A program made the translations under genes and the position numbers. From the NCBI RefSeq assembly GCF_000332195.1, contig NZ_KB235922.1, forward strand, positions 1,361,902 through 1,425,901: 64,000 nt of DNA, in the 5' to 3' direction. Below the pieces are notes generated by a model that made no database searches, had not been told where the DNA came from, and saw only the letters and a list, made by a program, of their open reading frames with translations. Within the stretch, counting starts at the first letter, position 1; each line of letters begins with the position of its first letter. Origin of the DNA: Pleurocapsa sp. PCC 7319 (GTDB taxonomy: Bacteria; Cyanobacteriota; Cyanobacteriia; Cyanobacteriales; Xenococcaceae). Shown piece after piece: positions 50,727 through 56,698 of the stretch.

Positions 50727-50987
50727 TTATTCCCCATAATGCGACCAAACAGAAACCACTTTTACAATCTTGTTTTTTTCATCTATTGAATAAACCAAAC
50801 GATGCTGAATGTTAATACGTCGAGAATAATAGCCTTGTAGATCACCAGCAAGTTTTTTACATGGAGGTTGATATGGATTTTGCTCAAGAATTTCTATTAA
50901 TTGATTAACGTTGGCAGCTAAATTGGCAGATCGTAGTTTTTTGGCATCTTTTAAAGCCTTACGGGAAAACTTAATCGTCCAAGCCAT
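50727..50987 (-). CDS. yoeB: Txe/YoeB family toxin
   Basis: The 86-aa RelE-superfamily endoribonuclease toxin has WTIKFSRKALKDAKKLR at the start, INIQHRLVYSIDEKN with the conserved Arg and Tyr, and the C-terminal VSVWSHYGE containing the catalytic His-Tyr pair. Toxins of this family cut mRNA in the ribosome A-site. Its start overlaps the antitoxin gene by 17 bp. It appears intact. Confidence 0.92.
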   Translation of the reverse strand: MAWTIKFSRKALKDAKKLRSANLAANVNQLIEILEQNPYQPPCKKLAGDLQGYYSRRINIQHRLVYSIDEKNKIVKVVSVWSHYGE

Positions 50988-51234
50988 TTAATTCATCCAT
51001 AAATTCTGCTTCTGATACCCATTCATCATCTGCTTCAGCTTGCTTTATAGACTCAACAAATCCTGGTATAGACTGCAAATATAATGTTTCTTGTATACTT
51101 TCCCAATCATCTTTAGAGATTAATACCCCATCTCCTTTACGAGAAGTGATAATACAAGGTTCACTTTCTCGATTAACTTGTTCTAATAACTTAAACAAGT
51201 TTGCTCTAGCGTGACTCGCACTATGAATATCCAT
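50971..51234 (-). CDS. yefM: YefM/Phd family antitoxin
   Basis: The 87-aa antitoxin has the Phd/YefM DNA-binding N terminus (SHARANLFKLLEQVNRESEP, VLISKDDWESIQETLYL) and an acidic toxin-binding tail (ADDEWVSEAEFMDELNG). It comes first in the operon and overlaps the toxin gene by 17 bp, so expression is coupled. It probably autorepresses the promoter near 51240-51300. Confidence 0.92.
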   Translation of the reverse strand: MDIHSASHARANLFKLLEQVNRESEPCIITSRKGDGVLISKDDWESIQETLYLQSIPGFVESIKQAEADDEWVSEAEFMDELNGLDD

Positions 51235-51854: not shown

Positions 51855-52173
51855 AATAGCAACAGTAGTAATAGTTACAAATTAATAAAAGTTCGTATTG
51901 CTATAAATGTAAACTTTGTCAATCAATTTAACATATTTTAATGTGCTGCTGTTTAAAATTGTAGGTGTGACAGATTGCATATTATTACTTTCTGTTCTGA
52001 TTAAGAGGATATCTGAAAATTAACAATGTCTACGTTTGGGTTAGGGTAGTATCATTAATTTTCAATCAAATCACGATGGTTGCAACTGGTCTGTGTAAAT
52101 ATTGAATCTAACTTTTGCGTAACAAAATTTACTTTCAGACAACCTCTAGTACTTTACAAAAGGAGGATTGGTC
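51855..52173. other. Intergenic region with solo MITE end
   Basis: This 319-bp gap lies between glnB and the RTX gene. Bases 51883-51905 repeat exactly 23 nt of the right end of the long MITE (16033-16055). ATAGCAA at 51856-51862 is its only weak partner, so it looks like a truncated or solo end. The rest is AT-rich promoter DNA. Confidence 0.65.
52160..52166 (+). promoter_or_regulatory. Shine-Dalgarno of the RTX protein gene
   Basis: AAGGAGG, with the ATG at 52174 seven bases downstream, selects that ATG over a TTG at 52168. Confidence 0.65.
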
Positions 52174-53661
52174 ATGAGTAATTCATCGCATACAGAAAAT
52201 CAATCTCATTCTAATAACTTTGATCACGACGATACACTAGATGTTAAAACACCAATATTGAGTGTTGCCGACTTTAATGGTGATGGTCAGGTTGACTTTA
52301 CTGATATCCAAGATATTTTCTCTCGTTATAATTCTGTTGATGGAGACGATCTTTATCATCCTCTCTATGATTTGAATACTGATGGTCAAATCAATGTTCA
52401 TGACATAATTCGGGCACTCAATACTTATGGTGAGGACGTACCTCTTCTAGATCAACAAATTGCTCAAGCGACTCAAGCCACAATGAAATATTATGGCTCT
52501 GGAGGACTGGAACAAGCGATCGCCGATGGTTATATTCCGACTACACAAGAGGCTATAGGACATGGCACTCATTATTCCAACTTGAGTATATTTCTCGAAA
52601 CGAAAAACTCAGATCAAATTGATATTACTCGTCCAGTAGGATTGAACTATGATGCAGAAGGTAATCTGATCGCCGTCTTTTATCTGCGTGAACCTTTGAC
52701 ACAAGAGGCAACACCAGAAAATCCTCTAGCACAGTTTTTAGTTGATTCCACTGACGACTTTCCACCATCTTCTTCTTTTGATACTTTATCAGCAGAAGAT
52801 TGGCACGCACACGAAAGCTTTTGGATTACTAATACAGGTAACTTAGATAATTCTGAGTATGTCTTCTTTGAAGAAGATGTACCTGTCAATATGATCGCAT
52901 CTCGAATAGAACAGGCAGAATCCATGTTCTATCCTGAATCAGATATATTTTACAGTCCGAAGGTATGGATGTTACACGGTTGGTTTCATTCATTTAACCC
53001 GAATGGAACTTTTGCGATTACCAATCCCGAGGTTGCTCCTTATGCCCCTCAAGAACTTGGGGCACATGGGGGACACCATCAAGGTGATAGTACCCCTCTG
53101 ATTGCGGGAACTGATGAAGGTGAAGGATTACTAGGTACTGATGAAGACGATCGCATCAATGGCTTTGGCGGTGATGATTGGATTGCTGGAGGACTAGGTG
53201 ATGATTTAATCTGGGGTAGTCATGGCAATGATTGGCTGAGAGGTGACTATGATAATTCCTTAGAAGGTGGAGATGATATGGTCTATGGAGGACCAGGTAA
53301 CGACCAGATTTCTGGTCATGTTGGCAATGACAGATTATTTGGCGGTACAGAAAACGATCAGATTGAAGGAGGAGAAGGTGATGATCTGCTGCGGGGTGGC
53401 ATAGGTTACGACATATTGACAGGAAATGAAGGAGCAGATACTTTTGTTTTAACTCCTGGTGAAGGCACAGACATCATTACTGACTTGGAAATTGAGTTTG
53501 ATACTATAGTGCTCTATGGTGGTATTGCTCAGGACAATATATCAATTAACCAGATTGACAATAATACCTCACTCAGTTTCAATAATGAAACTTTGGCAAT
53601 TCTCAGTGGAGTTAATGCCGAAGATTTAATAGCAGCTAGTAATGATATTTTTCTAAGTTAA
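52174..53661 (+). CDS. RTX calcium-binding protein with dockerin-like EF-hands
   Basis: The 495-aa acidic protein has two N-terminal EF-hand/dockerin-like calcium loops (DFNGDGQVDFTD and DLNTDGQINVHD, about 30-85). The central region of about 250 residues is His/Glu-rich (DWHAHESFW, HGWFHSFNPNGTF) and of unknown fold. The C-terminal part has about six RTX nonapeptide-type repeats (GGDDWIAGGLGDDLIWG, GGPGNDQISG) before a final beta domain. There is no Sec signal, so type I secretion is likely. No ABC exporter gene adjoins it. Confidence 0.85.
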   Translation: MSNSSHTENQSHSNNFDHDDTLDVKTPILSVADFNGDGQVDFTDIQDIFSRYNSVDGDDLYHPLYDLNTDGQINVHDIIRALNTYGEDVPLLDQQIAQATQATMKYYGSGGLEQAIADGYIPTTQEAIGHGTHYSNLSIFLETKNSDQIDITRPVGLNYDAEGNLIAVFYLREPLTQEATPENPLAQFLVDSTDDFPPSSSFDTLSAEDWHAHESFWITNTGNLDNSEYVFFEEDVPVNMIASRIEQAESMFYPESDIFYSPKVWMLHGWFHSFNPNGTFAITNPEVAPYAPQELGAHGGHHQGDSTPLIAGTDEGEGLLGTDEDDRINGFGGDDWIAGGLGDDLIWGSHGNDWLRGDYDNSLEGGDDMVYGGPGNDQISGHVGNDRLFGGTENDQIEGGEGDDLLRGGIGYDILTGNEGADTFVLTPGEGTDIITDLEIEFDTIVLYGGIAQDNISINQIDNNTSLSFNNETLAILSGVNAEDLIAASNDIFLS

Positions 53662-53706: not shown

Positions 53707-54717
53707 TTAAAACCAATCTCGATCTCTTTCAGGGGGTGGTTCTTTCTTGGTTTTAAAACCAAAGTTTTCCGTATCCTTTGATTGAGAATTTGCTGACCCA
53801 ATAGAACTTTTATTGGAACTAGACCAATCATTAAAATGATTAATTAATTCTTGGCTGGCTGTTGCTACTTTGGCAGCATGTTGAAGAGTAAGGTCTAAGT
53901 CTTCTTTAGCTCGATGAGAAATTATCTCAGAAAAAGAGGGAGATTTGTGGAAGTTTTCGTTTTTAGGGGATTGCTTGGTTTCCGTAATTCGATCTTGAAC
54001 CGTAAAATTGTCTAATTGACCTACAGTTTGATTGAGAAAAGGGCTATAAGAGTAAAGCTTTCCATTAGTATTCAAGCAAACTGAAGTATCTACCAAACAT
54101 TTGGCTGCTGCTTTCCATAGCTGACTATTTTGTTCTGTACAACTTTCCCATAAAAATACTTTGTGGGGATATTTTGTTTGGTCGTTTAATTGGGGAAATA
54201 GGTCAATTGTAGAATGTTCTATTGATTTTTCGTTAGCAAAATTGTGGGACTGATAAGAACTTAAAAAGGGTTTTTTACTATCTTGGTCATAGTCTTTCAC
54301 CAGCCAGACCTTTTCAACCTCTCGATAAAGAATTTGAAAGCTTTCTAGGTATGTTCCACTGTAAGCAGGGAGATCTAACAGGTCTTTTCTTTGGTTTAAT
54401 TGAGTGACATAACCAACAAAGACATATAGTGGTCTACCACGATCATCTTTAGTCATGGCTTCAACCAGCTCTGTACTTACTTGATTAACTAAATCTCTGA
54501 CCATGCAAGTGACACCAATAATGCAATGGGAATGATTTTTAAATAGTGACCAACGAGGGTTAGAAGGCAACCTTCTGGCTTGATGAGTGGTGGCTAAAAT
54601 ATGTTGAGCAGCCCAATTAACTTCATGATTGGTGAAGTCATCAGGGATAGTAATAAAACGGAAATCGAGATGATAACTGCGGCCATAAACAATCGGTGCC
54701 CATTGTTGTTTAGACAT
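53707..54717 (-). CDS. GTPase-linked protein of unknown function with C-terminal WF
   Basis: I do not recognise this 336-aa protein. Residues 1-230 look folded (QQWAPIVYGRSYHLDFRFIT, SLFKNHSHCIIGVTCMVRD, VFVGYVTQL). About 230-336 is polar and low-complexity and ends RDRDWF. Its start overlaps the GTPase gene by 8 bp, so the products are probably made together. The N-terminal region may correspond to a GTPase-associated (GAP1-like) domain of predicted conflict systems, but I cannot confirm that. The terminal WF is shared with the kinase two genes upstream. Confidence 0.65.
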   Translation of the reverse strand: MSKQQWAPIVYGRSYHLDFRFITIPDDFTNHEVNWAAQHILATTHQARRLPSNPRWSLFKNHSHCIIGVTCMVRDLVNQVSTELVEAMTKDDRGRPLYVFVGYVTQLNQRKDLLDLPAYSGTYLESFQILYREVEKVWLVKDYDQDSKKPFLSSYQSHNFANEKSIEHSTIDLFPQLNDQTKYPHKVFLWESCTEQNSQLWKAAAKCLVDTSVCLNTNGKLYSYSPFLNQTVGQLDNFTVQDRITETKQSPKNENFHKSPSFSEIISHRAKEDLDLTLQHAAKVATASQELINHFNDWSSSNKSSIGSANSQSKDTENFGFKTKKEPPPERDRDWF

Positions 54718-55687
54718 CCGCTGTCACCTCGCTACCGCTGAAATATAAGGAAACCTGTTGTAATTCTTGAGAAAGCAACTTCATATTCTCTTCTACTGTG
54801 GTTATTTTTGTTTCACAGTTTTGCAGCTCTATAGTCTGCTCGTCTAATTCTGAGTTTTTTAATAGTTGTATTAGTGGATTAGCTTGTTTAATGGCATCAA
54901 TAGCTAGAAGTTGATGATCGCGATCGGCTTTAAGCTTGATTCCGTAGGCTCTTAACTGAGCATATGCGGCAAAAACTACGGGGAGATGAACATTAACGGG
55001 GACGATTTTGGCATTATCAAGATCATCGCATAAATCCTTGCCTAAGCTAACAGGACAAATCATGACCAACCATCCTGAATTGGGAGTAAACAAGGCCTGA
55101 AATAATTTTTGCACATCAGCAATAATCTCTTCTTTATCCCGATGATGACACAAATCGTATTTAGTAATGACAATAGCTATCGGGAAAGGATTATGAGGTG
55201 TCGGATTTTTGGTAGCACTAATGTATTGCTGAATAAACTGATTCATGCGATCGCTTTTGAGTTCTCGCACAGTTCTGGGAGTAATTTTATCAACTAAATG
55301 CTCTCCGGAAATACAAAGAAATAAGCACTTAGATTCCATCAAGTACTGAACTAGTTCGGCGACATCCTGTTCTGTAGAGCGATCGCTTAAGGCCAAACCG
55401 CGATAATCTAACCATTGAAACCCCATTAAAGGGCGAAAACCATAACTAAAACCAAAACCATAATATTCCATGGTCGCAGCATTAGGAGTGGGCCAGCGAT
55501 CTGCTCCTGTTTCCGAAATCAATTTTTCCCATCTCTCAGTTAATTCCAAGTCCAAATCCATATCATTAGTAGCAATGGTAAATCCTTGTATTCCTGTTTG
55601 CATCACTGCATACATACCTAGTAGGTAACTGGTTTTCCCTGCACCAGTAGTGCCTAACATCGTAATTTTGATATCTTCAAGTTTCAT
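54710..55687 (-). CDS. TRAFAC-like P-loop GTPase
   Basis: The 325-aa protein has the P-loop GTTGAGKTS (12-20), a DxxG-type switch II in WLDYRG (92-97) and TKYD (175-178) in the place of the NKxD specificity motif. These indicate a GTPase rather than an ATPase. A C-terminal coiled coil (about 265-315) follows. There is no membrane segment. It begins three bases after the kinase stop and overlaps the next gene by 8 bp, forming a kinase-GTPase-unknown operon. Related GTPases occur in predicted conflict and signalling operons. Confidence 0.82.
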   Translation of the reverse strand: MKLEDIKITMLGTTGAGKTSYLLGMYAVMQTGIQGFTIATNDMDLDLELTERWEKLISETGADRWPTPNAATMEYYGFGFSYGFRPLMGFQWLDYRGLALSDRSTEQDVAELVQYLMESKCLFLCISGEHLVDKITPRTVRELKSDRMNQFIQQYISATKNPTPHNPFPIAIVITKYDLCHHRDKEEIIADVQKLFQALFTPNSGWLVMICPVSLGKDLCDDLDNAKIVPVNVHLPVVFAAYAQLRAYGIKLKADRDHQLLAIDAIKQANPLIQLLKNSELDEQTIELQNCETKITTVEENMKLLSQELQQVSLYFSGSEVTADV

Positions 55688-55690
55688 CTA

Positions 55691-56698
55691 TTAAAACCAC
55701 TTAGTTATATTGGTGCGAGATTGGGGAGGAGAACTAGTCTTCGTTTGACTAAAGATATTCCAAGGATCTTCCACTGAATGATAAAAATTAGTTGGTTCAA
55801 CTTTAACATTTAGTTTCGTGGGGTCTAAATGAAGTAGATCGAGAAATTCTCTAACAGATTGGGTTCGTTCAGTAACATCCATGAGCATCGCTTTGGCGAT
55901 CGCTTGGCTGACATGAGGGCTTATCTGTGGTTCGAGTTCTCTGACCGTTTTCAACTCAACTCCTGCTGCCCTCTCGATGGCAGATATAGGAGCTTTACCA
56001 GTTAATAGGTGATATAAGGTTGAACCCAAAGCATAAATATCAGTAAATGCTCCATACTTCAAGGCACGTCCATACTGCTCTAGGGGAGCATAACCTGGAG
56101 TTAACAAAGTGGTGTATCTAGCGGTATTTTTTGAGGTAAAATCTCTTGCTGCACCGAAGTCGATCAATACGACTCGTCCATCATCTGCCAGCATAATATT
56201 ATCAGGTTTAATATCACGATGCAGAAATTGGGCTTGATGAAGAATTTCTAGGGCTTCCCCGACCTTAGCCATATATCCGAGAGCTTCAGCTTCAGTTAAT
56301 TTTCCCTTTCTTTTTTTGAGTAGTTCTGCCAAAGTTTTACCCTCTAGATATTCCATCACCATGTAGGCAGTATTATTTTCCTCAAAATAATAAAAAACCT
56401 GCACAATACCAGGATGATTAAATTGTCCGAGGGTTTGTCCCTCTAAGAGAAATTTTTGTTTAGCATTACTATAGGTGTCAGAATTCCACTTTCCTGCAGA
56501 AACTACTGTCGACCCCTCTCTCCAACATCCTTCAGGGAAAAATTCCTTAACCGCGACAGCGCGATTTAGCTTGGTGTCTATACCCTGGTAGGTAATGCCA
56601 AATCCTCCCTGACCAAGAGGCTCAGAAATTTGATACTCGCCATCAGACAGACAAGCACCAGGATTGAGTATTCCTTTAACCCTGGTAAATGCAACCAT
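55691..56698 (-). CDS. Serine/threonine protein kinase
   Basis: The 335-aa soluble Hanks-type kinase has the Gly loop LGQGGFG (28-34), VAVKEFF Lys51, HRDIKPDN (160-167), DFGAA (180-184) and a GYAPLEQYG activation-segment end typical of cyanobacterial kinases. The catalytic domain fills about 20-280. The tail is Ser/Pro-rich and ends NITKWF, with no membrane helix or sensor domain. The ATG at 56698 has AGGAG nine or ten bases upstream. It is the first gene of the GTPase cassette. Confidence 0.9.
   Translation of the reverse strand: MVAFTRVKGILNPGACLSDGEYQISEPLGQGGFGITYQGIDTKLNRAVAVKEFFPEGCWREGSTVVSAGKWNSDTYSNAKQKFLLEGQTLGQFNHPGIVQVFYYFEENNTAYMVMEYLEGKTLAELLKKRKGKLTEAEALGYMAKVGEALEILHQAQFLHRDIKPDNIMLADDGRVVLIDFGAARDFTSKNTARYTTLLTPGYAPLEQYGRALKYGAFTDIYALGSTLYHLLTGKAPISAIERAAGVELKTVRELEPQISPHVSQAIAKAMLMDVTERTQSVREFLDLLHLDPTKLNVKVEPTNFYHSVEDPWNIFSQTKTSSPPQSRTNITKWF

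What the first reader, a model, noticed from the sequence alone, without database searches (positions are those of the whole stretch)
53707..56698. Overlapping kinase-GTPase-unknown cassette: candidate undescribed signalling or defence unit
Three minus-strand genes are packed with 3-bp spacing and an 8-bp overlap: a soluble Ser/Thr kinase without sensor, a TRAFAC-like GTPase with a C-terminal coiled coil, and a protein I cannot assign. Families of this type occur in predicted bacterial conflict operons that pair GTPases with associated (GAP1-like) proteins. A dedicated kinase as the upstream member is unusual. Tight coupling implies that the three products act in one complex. What is seen is the gene order and the motifs; a joint function is inference.
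Basis: partly seen in the sequence, partly recalled or inferred. Interest (0 to 1): 0.8.

Follow-up and report, generated by a model that had tools for sequence, protein, structure and literature searches.

The report
Kinase-GTPase-TagF-like switch with shared tails
Three tightly packed genes in a cyanobacterium encode a kinase, a GTPase and a partner protein that stay together in nearly all sampled relatives, and the two non-GTPase proteins end in the same short tag, which suggests one switch complex whose unrelated parts are joined by matching tails.

Summary
In detail: three minus-strand genes, 3-bp gap, 8-bp overlap. They form a real unit: 25 of 27 family genomes sampled carry the third gene, and kinase-GTPase-third order holds wherever contigs allow, with one exception. 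Elsewhere in cyanobacteria the GTPase-third pair recurs, on three plasmids among other places, in larger clusters with Hsp70, AAA+, radical-SAM, dynamin, vWA or CHAT-protease genes. The GTPase marginally matches DO-GTPase2. The third protein is not GAP1; its predicted core resembles TagF, the type VI secretion regulator encoded directly after TssM (12 of 12 loci read), but profile methods do not confirm homology. New here: unrelated proteins of one operon share a C-terminal aromatic tail. All 22 kinases placed before the GTPase and all 24 third proteins read in the family end in Trp-Phe, against 0 of 377 background ORFs; elsewhere second GTPases, an Hsp70 and zinc-ribbon proteins carry related tails, and tail type co-varies by operon (1 of 5000 permutations). 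Best reading: a GTP-dependent switch complex, the third protein being the GTPase's dedicated partner and the tails docking peptides. In this family it looks domesticated, without effectors; defence is plausible for the mobile versions, unproven here.

The parts
55691..56698 (-). Hanks-type Ser/Thr kinase, 335 aa, catalytic motifs intact, no further domain found; variable linker with F-Y and DPWNIF, C-terminal Trp-Phe
   Evidence: Pfam PF00069 1.6e-45; tail conservation
55751..55768 (-). DPWNIF motif in the kinase tail (D..W..F), resembling the DPFxxF tails of GTPase 2 in other operons
   Evidence: W and F 20 of 20, D 18 of 20, P 15 of 20 family kinases aligned
55691..55699 (-). C-terminal Trp-Phe and stop of the kinase
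   Evidence: 22 of 22 family kinases that stand before the GTPase; 0 of 27 other complete kinase-like frames examined in the same genome
54710..55687 (-). TRAFAC-type GTPase, DO-GTPase2-like, with C-terminal helical hairpin
   Evidence: PF19993 27.3 bits, cut-off 27; model pLDDT 89.9; Foldseek to small GTPases, best E 4.8e-6
55631..55654 (-). G1 motif GTTGAGKT
   Evidence: G17 K18 T19 invariant, 21 of 21
55397..55408 (-). G3 motif DYRG
   Evidence: 21 of 21
55154..55165 (-). G4 motif TKYD
   Evidence: D178 21 of 21, K176 18 of 21, T175 20 of 21
54710..54717 (-). 8-bp overlap of GTPase stop and third-gene start
   Evidence: same overlap in 21 of 23 family loci
53707..54717 (-). third protein, 336 aa: TagF-like core (about 1-245), one helix (262-298), disordered tail
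   Evidence: model, mean pLDDT 72.9; Foldseek TagF 9t0n E 2.1e-4 prob 1.00
54433..54447 (-). D91..R95 of the third protein, counterpart by spacing of TagF D81/R85
   Evidence: R95 27 of 27, D91 26 of 27; TagF residues from PMC5995506 passages
53746..53763 (-). FGFKTK motif in the third protein's tail
   Evidence: F, G, first K and second K 20 of 20, second F 19 of 20 family sequences aligned
53707..53715 (-). C-terminal Trp-Phe and stop of the third protein
   Evidence: 24 of 24 family third proteins read; background 0 of 377 ORFs

Best explanation
The three genes encode one GTP-dependent signalling switch. The third protein, with a TagF-like fold, is the dedicated partner and probably regulator of the GTPase. 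The kinase is brought to the pair by short disordered C-terminal tails ending in Trp-Phe, carried by both the kinase and the third protein and read by one site, most likely on the GTPase or on the third protein's core. GTP state and phosphorylation together would set assembly of the complex, as kinase, phosphatase, TagF and the TssM/TssL membrane complex do for type VI secretion. In other cyanobacteria the same GTPase-third core drives larger, in part plasmid-borne, conflict-type clusters with Hsp70, AAA+, dynamin or CHAT proteins; in this family the core plus kinase stands alone without effectors and likely serves a cell-intrinsic stress, envelope or division response. Shown: unit, conservation, correlated divergence, tails and their co-variation, predicted folds. 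Inferred: physical complex, direction of regulation, reader of the tail, biological role.
For: Third gene in 25 of 27 family genomes and 15 other genomes of the order sample (40 of 388; one of the 15, G537, is a weak frame-broken match and one of the 25, G562, a contig-end fragment). Kinase-GTPase-third synteny and conserved overlap; distance matrices of the three proteins correlate at r 0.91-0.93, 0 of 2000 permutations (20 loci). GTPase adjacent to 49 of 53 third copies. WF tails: 57 of 204 system ORFs against 0 of 377 others; 22 of 22 kinases before the GTPase and 24 of 24 third proteins in the family; last two residues 20 of 20 in both alignments while the preceding tails vary (mean top-residue share 0.51 and 0.49); of 28 complete kinase-like frames examined in this genome only the trio's ends WF. 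Tail type co-varies across non-homologous families by operon: observed 305, permuted mean 219, sd 22, 1 of 5000. The GTPases labelled GTP3 never carry the tail (0 of 40). TagF-like fold of the third; tagF directly after tssM in 12 of 12 loci fetched; TssM consensus with GPPGAGKT, DTAG and TKAD; published proposal that TagF acts on TssM or the membrane complex (PMC10482370 and PMC6082577, passages).
Against: No direct evidence of binding. Sequence profiles do not link the third protein to TagF: no TagF_N hit, hhalign probability 0.08 percent and E 0.66, own profile alignment z 1.1; Foldseek TM-scores only 0.2-0.33. GTPase against TssM by hhalign aligns only 57 columns around the G4 motif (E 9e-5, probability 59.5 percent). 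Within the family the tails of each protein are homologous by descent, so independence rests on a few operons. The second tail form is less specific: a loose pattern for it fits 22 of 204 system ORFs but also 10 of 377 others, and matching inside an operon is not always exact (L146 GTPase2 ends DPFDAFN beside WF proteins; L068 mixes SIWDF and DPFDEF). For the third protein the tail is hardly more variable than the core (0.49 against 0.58). Thirds of the Trichodesmium/Okeania type, L147 and L089 lack the tail (TM-like C-termini in several, by eye), and L141 and L142 thirds lack it too. One family locus (L138, G575) has no kinase before the GTPase. In 13 of 18 genomes with a match to the GTPase, all weak, no third gene was found.
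Confidence: 0.6

Rival explanations
1. It is an anti-phage or conflict system in this genome too: kinase and third protein sense infection, the GTPase gates an unlinked effector.
For: Marginal DO-GTPase2 match; relatives of the core lie with CHAT proteases and vWA, with a CHAT gene and dynamins, or near an anti-phage dCTP deaminase and dGTPase on a Geminocystis plasmid; three plasmid records carry it; one family locus (L124) has a STAND-WD40 gene, a kind often seen in conflict systems, next to it.
Against: No recognised effector next to the window trio; the 10 family neighbours scanned are mostly unrelated to each other and not shared effectors (GGDEF-EAL, histidine kinases, STAND-WD40, amidase, glycosyl hydrolase-like, transposase and others); 25 of 27 genomes have it, unlike patchy defence genes; one viral-contig scan found no relative.
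Confidence: 0.25
2. The shared tail is a degradation, chaperone or processing signal (for an AAA+ machine, Hsp70 or a protease) that controls the level of these proteins, not a docking peptide.
For: Several larger clusters encode tandem AAA+ and Hsp70; C-terminal tags commonly act as degrons (general knowledge).
Against: The family keeps the tail without an AAA+ or Hsp70 of that kind recognised in the stretches read; the tandem AAA+ has no full-length match in this genome (three partial matches); the tail type co-varies by operon, which a housekeeping protease would not need.
Confidence: 0.2
3. The unit serves a lineage-specific cell-biological function such as the multiple-fission (baeocyte) life cycle of this family, with no link to conflict.
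For: Near-universal in the family sample; named records of the same contigs are Pleurocapsa, Myxosarcina, Waterburya, Hyella, Xenococcaceae and Hyellaceae; correlated divergence.
Against: No telling gene context in the family; two family genomes (genus g143) lack it; some relatives outside are plasmid-borne. The life cycle of the family members was not checked here.
Confidence: 0.2
4. The genes are merely co-transcribed neighbours without joint function.
For: None beyond the lack of biochemical data; correlated divergence alone could reflect common phylogeny.
Against: Synteny, overlap, GTPase-third pairing in different settings, shared tails.
Confidence: 0.03

Closest known systems
DO-GTPase / GAP1 conflict systems (Kaur et al. 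2020, PMC7159879; sections 22, 27, 28, 29 and passages read)
   Same: TRAFAC GTPase of the double-GTPase kind with a protein encoded directly downstream; Hsp70, kinase, vWA, zinc-ribbon and caspase-type companions in some members
   Different: [quoted passage not shown] here the downstream protein is TagF-like, not GAP1; no GASH or FNIII protein recognised in the trio; the terms TagF, linear motif, short motif and C-terminal tail do not occur in its main text
T6SS post-translational control: PpkA kinase, PppA, Fha, TagF, TssM (PMC5995506, PMC6082577, PMC10482370; passages seen)
   Same: Kinase, a protein with GTPase motifs, and a TagF-fold protein encoded directly after it; conserved G-[KR], D-F, W and D-x3-R positions
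   Different: No TssM in this genome and no TagF_N profile hit; GTPase is stand-alone; no PP2C among the seven window proteins scanned; Fha not searched; none of the ten full-length TagF rows ends in WF
Single-stranded DNA-binding protein C-terminal tip and Hsp70 EEVD tails (recalled, from no call)
   Same: Disordered linker ending in a short conserved C-terminal docking peptide
   Different: Here non-homologous proteins of one operon carry related tips and the tip type changes by operon
PD-T4-6 and Mad6 defence kinases (PADLOC)
   Same: Ser/Thr kinase domain
   Different: The match covers the kinase domain only; GTPase and third protein have no PADLOC match

Membership tests
DO-GTPase/GAP1 conflict system | GTPase of the DO-GTPase families | tested here: met
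   PF19993 27.3 bits against cut-off 27, marginal; a CHAT-fused relative in L146 hits DO-GTPase1 2.5e-6
DO-GTPase/GAP1 conflict system | conserved glutamate at Walker B | tested here: inconclusive
   position 91, three before the G3 Asp: E in 11 of 21, Q in the window protein; which residue the authors mean was not checked
DO-GTPase/GAP1 conflict system | GAP1 protein (GAP1-N/M/C domains) downstream | tested here: not met
   no GAP1 family among 27 third proteins scanned against Pfam at E 0.1
DO-GTPase/GAP1 conflict system | two paralogous GTPases (38% of those systems by the paper) | tested here: not met
   one GTPase in the family loci; two or three in several other clusters; a second DO-GTPase2 frame lies elsewhere in this genome
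DO-GTPase/GAP1 conflict system | GASH or FNIII component and variable effectors | tested here: not met
   none among the seven window proteins or 10 family neighbours scanned; CHAT candidates only outside the family
TagF family | TagF fold | tested here: met
   Foldseek 9t0n E 2.1e-4, prob 1.00; 6iz8 4.9e-4; TM-scores low, 0.2-0.33
TagF family | TagF_N (PF09867) sequence profile | tested here: not met
   0 of 27 at E 0.1; none in own genome at E 10; hhalign E 0.66
TagF family | functional residues GK, DF, DW, SDR | tested here: inconclusive
   G12 26, R13 27 (K to R), D18 27, F/Y19 27, W35 27, D91 26, R95 27 of 27; position 89 is T or S in 15 of 27; the first D of DW has no conserved counterpart
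TagF family | encoded with TssM in a T6SS | tested here: not met
   no TIGR03348 TssM in own genome at E 0.001
T6SS threonine phosphorylation pathway | kinase with PP2C phosphatase and Fha | tested here: inconclusive
   kinase present; no PP2C among seven window proteins scanned; Fha and PP2C elsewhere not searched
PADLOC defence systems | system-specific companion proteins | tested here: not met
   GTPase and third have no PADLOC hit

The most novel reading that the evidence does not exclude
Cyanobacteria use a tail code: non-homologous proteins (kinase, TagF-like protein, second GTPase, Hsp70, zinc-ribbon coiled coil) are assigned to one GTPase switch by a short C-terminal aromatic peptide whose exact form is private to each operon, so that parallel systems in one cell do not mix. 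In addition, TagF-fold proteins are general partners of TRAFAC GTPases, and T6SS TagF acting on the GTPase-like domain of TssM is one special case of this pairing.
Probability: 0.4. Interest if true: 0.88.

Novelty: new variant of a known kind. Interest (0 to 1): 0.72.

Why it matters
It fills the reported near-absence of DO-GTPase systems in cyanobacteria with a variant that uses another partner protein. It gives a T6SS-free module in which a TagF-fold protein is tied to a stand-alone GTPase, so the open question whether TagF acts on TssM can be tested on small soluble proteins. The operon-linked C-terminal tails offer a simple, testable rule for finding further members and for how such multi-NTPase complexes recruit unrelated parts.

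Tried and rejected
GAP1-like identity of the third protein: rejected, no GAP1 family hit in 27 members. PARP2 hits of the A3 profile (E 0.0013-0.0017): the aligned region 174-312 includes the helix and linker; taken as a composition-type match and not followed. Avs1b hit of the third protein (E 0.0092, about 50 residues, 13 bits against a cut-off of 1500): too weak. PADLOC PD-T4-6 and Mad6 hits of the kinase: generic kinase-domain matches. Rag/LAMTOR and SEA-complex entries in the fold search (E 0.29-1.6, probability 0.04-0.10): not significant, kept only as a lead. Tandem AAA+ as reader of the tail in this genome: no full-length match. Genome-wide excess of WF-stop sites: none, 157 sites against 158 for the reversed pattern; the pattern covers only TAA and TGA stops and K, N, H, Q, D or E before WF. 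Of those 157 sites 72 were looked at (70 fetched; two in the window); only the two of the trio end an ORF of 90 aa or more; 85 were not looked at. Sequence-level homology to TagF: not established. Viral contigs: one scan, no relative. First scan of genome contigs with the single protein: no relative.

Selections made: the tail permutation test used 8 operons chosen because a tail was visible; L141, L142, L145, L147-L150, L011 and L089 and the near-duplicates L143, L144 and L151 were not in it, and one locus stands for the whole family. In the 204/377 count ORFs under 100 aa and duplicates by last 60 residues were dropped, ORFs are mechanical calls and labels are best BLASTP hits. The 12 T6SS loci were picked by me from 40 listed of 135 plasmid records with a match; clinical or pathogen-looking rows were passed over. 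The distance test and the conservation figures used 20 of 25 family loci, those with all three proteins complete. The structure of the third protein used 27 rows and that of the GTPase 21 rows. The listing of genomes without a match is cut after 20 rows; it is sorted by kinship and shows two family genomes, from which I take 27 as the family total.
Full report
What is there. The three minus-strand genes are exactly as described: kinase 55691-56698, 3 bp, GTPase 54710-55687, 8-bp overlap, third gene 53707-54717. The kinase matches PF00069 (1.6e-45) and has intact catalytic motifs; the GTPase just passes DO-GTPase2 (27.3 bits, cut-off 27); the third has no family. The genome has 40 further kinase-type matches, some in one frame, the nearest at 41% identity over the aligned part, so the trio's kinase is distinct.

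It is a conserved unit. A profile of seven third proteins found the gene in 40 of 388 genomes of the order, 25 of 27 in the window's family (one of the 25 is a contig-end fragment, one of the other 15 a weak frame-broken match), and in 5 of 386 genomes of a thin sample of the phylum, with the single protein as with a 27-row alignment. In the family, 25 loci were read: of 24 with a GTPase, 22 have the kinase directly upstream on the same strand and 23 the third gene directly downstream. The exceptions are contig ends, except L138 (genome G575, 81% complete), where a DICT-histidine-kinase gene lies upstream; a gene of the same make-up lies just before the trio's kinase in L131, so the kinase may have been lost there. 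The 8-bp overlap is kept in 21 of 23. Pairwise distances of the three proteins correlate at 0.91 to 0.93 over 20 loci (0 of 2000 permutations each), as joint inheritance predicts, though shared phylogeny alone would also do this. Ten neighbouring proteins scanned in family loci are mostly unrelated to each other and show no shared effector; one is a STAND-WD40 protein.

Outside the family. The GTPase-third pair recurs: 26 of 29 third copies outside the family, 23 of 24 inside, have an adjacent same-strand GTPase; 52 of all 53 have one within 4 kb and the last lies at a contig end (some loci are near-duplicates, for example L065 and L151). From the other side, 18 of 386 genomes have a match to the GTPase; the 5 with strong matches (228 bits or more) have the third gene, the 13 with weak matches (36 bits or less) do not. 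DO-GTPase2 frames as such are more common, 43 of 386 genomes. Clusters of the type GTPase1, third, GTPase2, GTPase3, third, or parts of it, occur on plasmids of Anabaena sp. 90, Calothrix sp. PCC 6303 and Geminocystis sp. NIES-3708 and elsewhere with Hsp70, tandem AAA+, zinc-ribbon coiled-coil, radical-SAM and dynamin genes in various subsets. On the Geminocystis plasmid an anti-phage dCTP deaminase and a dGTPase lie nearby. Genome G573 (L146) holds an operon-like row with vWA, a Clp_N-kinase, a CHAT-GTPase fusion, a zinc-ribbon kinase, three further GTPases, two third proteins and a kinase-TPR-CHAT protein. It is the only one of 19 loci read outside the family with kinase matches.

The shared tail. 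Reading the C-termini side by side, all 22 family kinases that stand directly before the GTPase and all 24 family third proteins end in Trp-Phe after variable linkers. In pANA01 and its relative L151, two third proteins, GTPase2 and Hsp70 end in WF; in Calothrix brevissima NIES-22 (L083), two third proteins and GTPase2; in L146, kinase and both third proteins, while its GTPase2 ends DPFDAFN. Other operons use a second form: DPFDL, DPFSL, DPFNPW and DPFYIFD in L012 for two third proteins, zinc-ribbon protein and GTPase2; DIWEL, DVWDL and DIWII in Calothrix PCC 6303, whose other third protein ends differently. Counted after removing duplicates, 57 of 204 system ORFs end in WF against 0 of 377 other ORFs of 100 aa or more from the same loci; a loose pattern for the second form fits 22 of 204 against 10 of 377, so that form is much less specific. 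In the window's genome 28 complete kinase-like frames were examined and only the trio's ends in WF. In the 20-locus family alignments the last two residues are invariant in both proteins while the preceding tail has a mean top-residue share of about 0.5 (cores: kinase 0.83, third 0.58); the kinase also keeps F-Y and D-P-W-x-x-F, the third protein FGFKxK. A permutation of operon labels within protein families, scoring only pairs of different families, gave 305 observed against 219 (sd 22), reached in 1 of 5000 (8 operons, selection stated under Tried and rejected). The GTPases labelled GTP3 never carry the tail (0 of 40). Third proteins of the Trichodesmium/Okeania type lack the tail; several have hydrophobic, TM-like C-termini instead (read by eye). 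Thirds of L141, L142, L147 and L089 lack it too.

What the third protein is. The model has a confident core and a disordered tail (mean pLDDT 72.9). Foldseek's best PDB matches are TagF of Acinetobacter baylyi (E 2.1e-4, probability 1.00) and TagF of Pseudomonas aeruginosa (4.9e-4); only these two pass E 0.001 and TM-scores are low, 0.2 to 0.33. Non-significant hits to Rag/LAMTOR entries and the strand order suggest a longin- or roadblock-like start, a lead only. Residues that mutational work on TagF found important (G8 K9, D15 F16, D30 W32, S79 D81 R85; PMC5995506 passages) have counterparts by order and spacing: G12 R13, D18 F/Y19, W35 (17 residues after D in both), D91 and R95 (4 apart in both), nearly invariant in 27 sequences; D30 and S79 are not well matched. 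Against this, sequence profiles do not reach TagF: no TagF_N hit, hhalign probability 0.08 percent and E 0.66 (though its only alignment is in the expected register), and my own profile alignment z 1.1. So the fold is TagF-like; common descent is likely in my judgement but unproven.

Why the GTPase pairing is telling. In 12 of 12 T6SS loci fetched, tagF lies directly after tssM, from 22 bp overlap to 38 bp gap. A Ser/Thr kinase gene is annotated after tagF in 9 of the 12 stretches, within two genes in 8 of them and as the fifth gene in L258, in some on the other strand; a separate PP2C gene in 6. TssM sequences carry GPPGAGKT, DTAG and TKAD (consensus); hhalign of our GTPases against them aligns only the G4 region (E 9e-5, probability 59.5 percent). 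Serratia work proposes that TagF prevents membrane-complex assembly, and a review adds that this may be through TssM (PMC6082577 and PMC10482370, passages). The window's genome has no TssM match. Kinase, GTPase and TagF-like protein thus look like the control arm of that machine without the machine; this parallel is my inference.

Mechanism, committed. Most likely the third protein controls the GTPase (the residue after the G3 motif is Leu, Gly, Ser or Asp in 21 sequences, never Gln, so help from a partner such as invariant R20 or R95 is plausible), the kinase joins through the tails, and phosphorylation and GTP state together set assembly. Confidence 0.6 for the switch-complex reading as a whole; about 0.95 that the three genes act together, 0.75 for tails as docking peptides, 0.7 for a true TagF relationship, 0.25 for an anti-phage role of this copy.

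Known or new. Kaur et al. 2020 (PMC7159879; [quoted passage not shown] The window trio is therefore a new variant rather than a member: GAP1 was tested and not met. In the listings of searches I saw no paper on the shared tails or on a TagF-like protein in cyanobacteria; these cover open-licence PMC only, and their terms were narrow.

Noticed in passing
window 50727-51234 (-): Type II toxin-antitoxin-like pair: YoeB/ParE-type protein and Phd/YefM-type antitoxin (Pfam).
   Followed up: no
window 52168-53661 (+): Protein with EF-hand/dockerin-like start and RTX calcium-binding repeats directly beside the trio; among the loci only L123 shows a match to it (33%).
   Followed up: partly
own genome G000:C7:2731010-2731489 (L045): A second DO-GTPase2-type frame (394 aa, E 1.1e-8, 36.7 bits), scoring higher than the trio's GTPase.
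   Followed up: no
own genome G000:C3:9874-25848: Dense array of nine kinase matches within 16 kb on contig C3.
   Followed up: no
L146 (G573): CHAT protease domain fused to a DO-GTPase, and a kinase-TPR-CHAT protein, in the same gene row as third proteins.
   Followed up: partly
L011, L145, L147-L150, L089: A conserved protein of about 460 aa with hydrophobic stretches (TM463) accompanies third proteins that lack a tail.
   Followed up: no
L089: Cluster on a contig binned as Crocinitomicaceae (Bacteroidota), GC 0.34 as in Trichodesmium clusters; could be bin contamination or transfer.
   Followed up: partly
L068 29175-31663: Several adjacent short frames annotated as UvrD-helicase pieces, exonuclease and DUF3883 on the Geminocystis plasmid, perhaps a decayed gene beside the cluster.
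   Followed up: no
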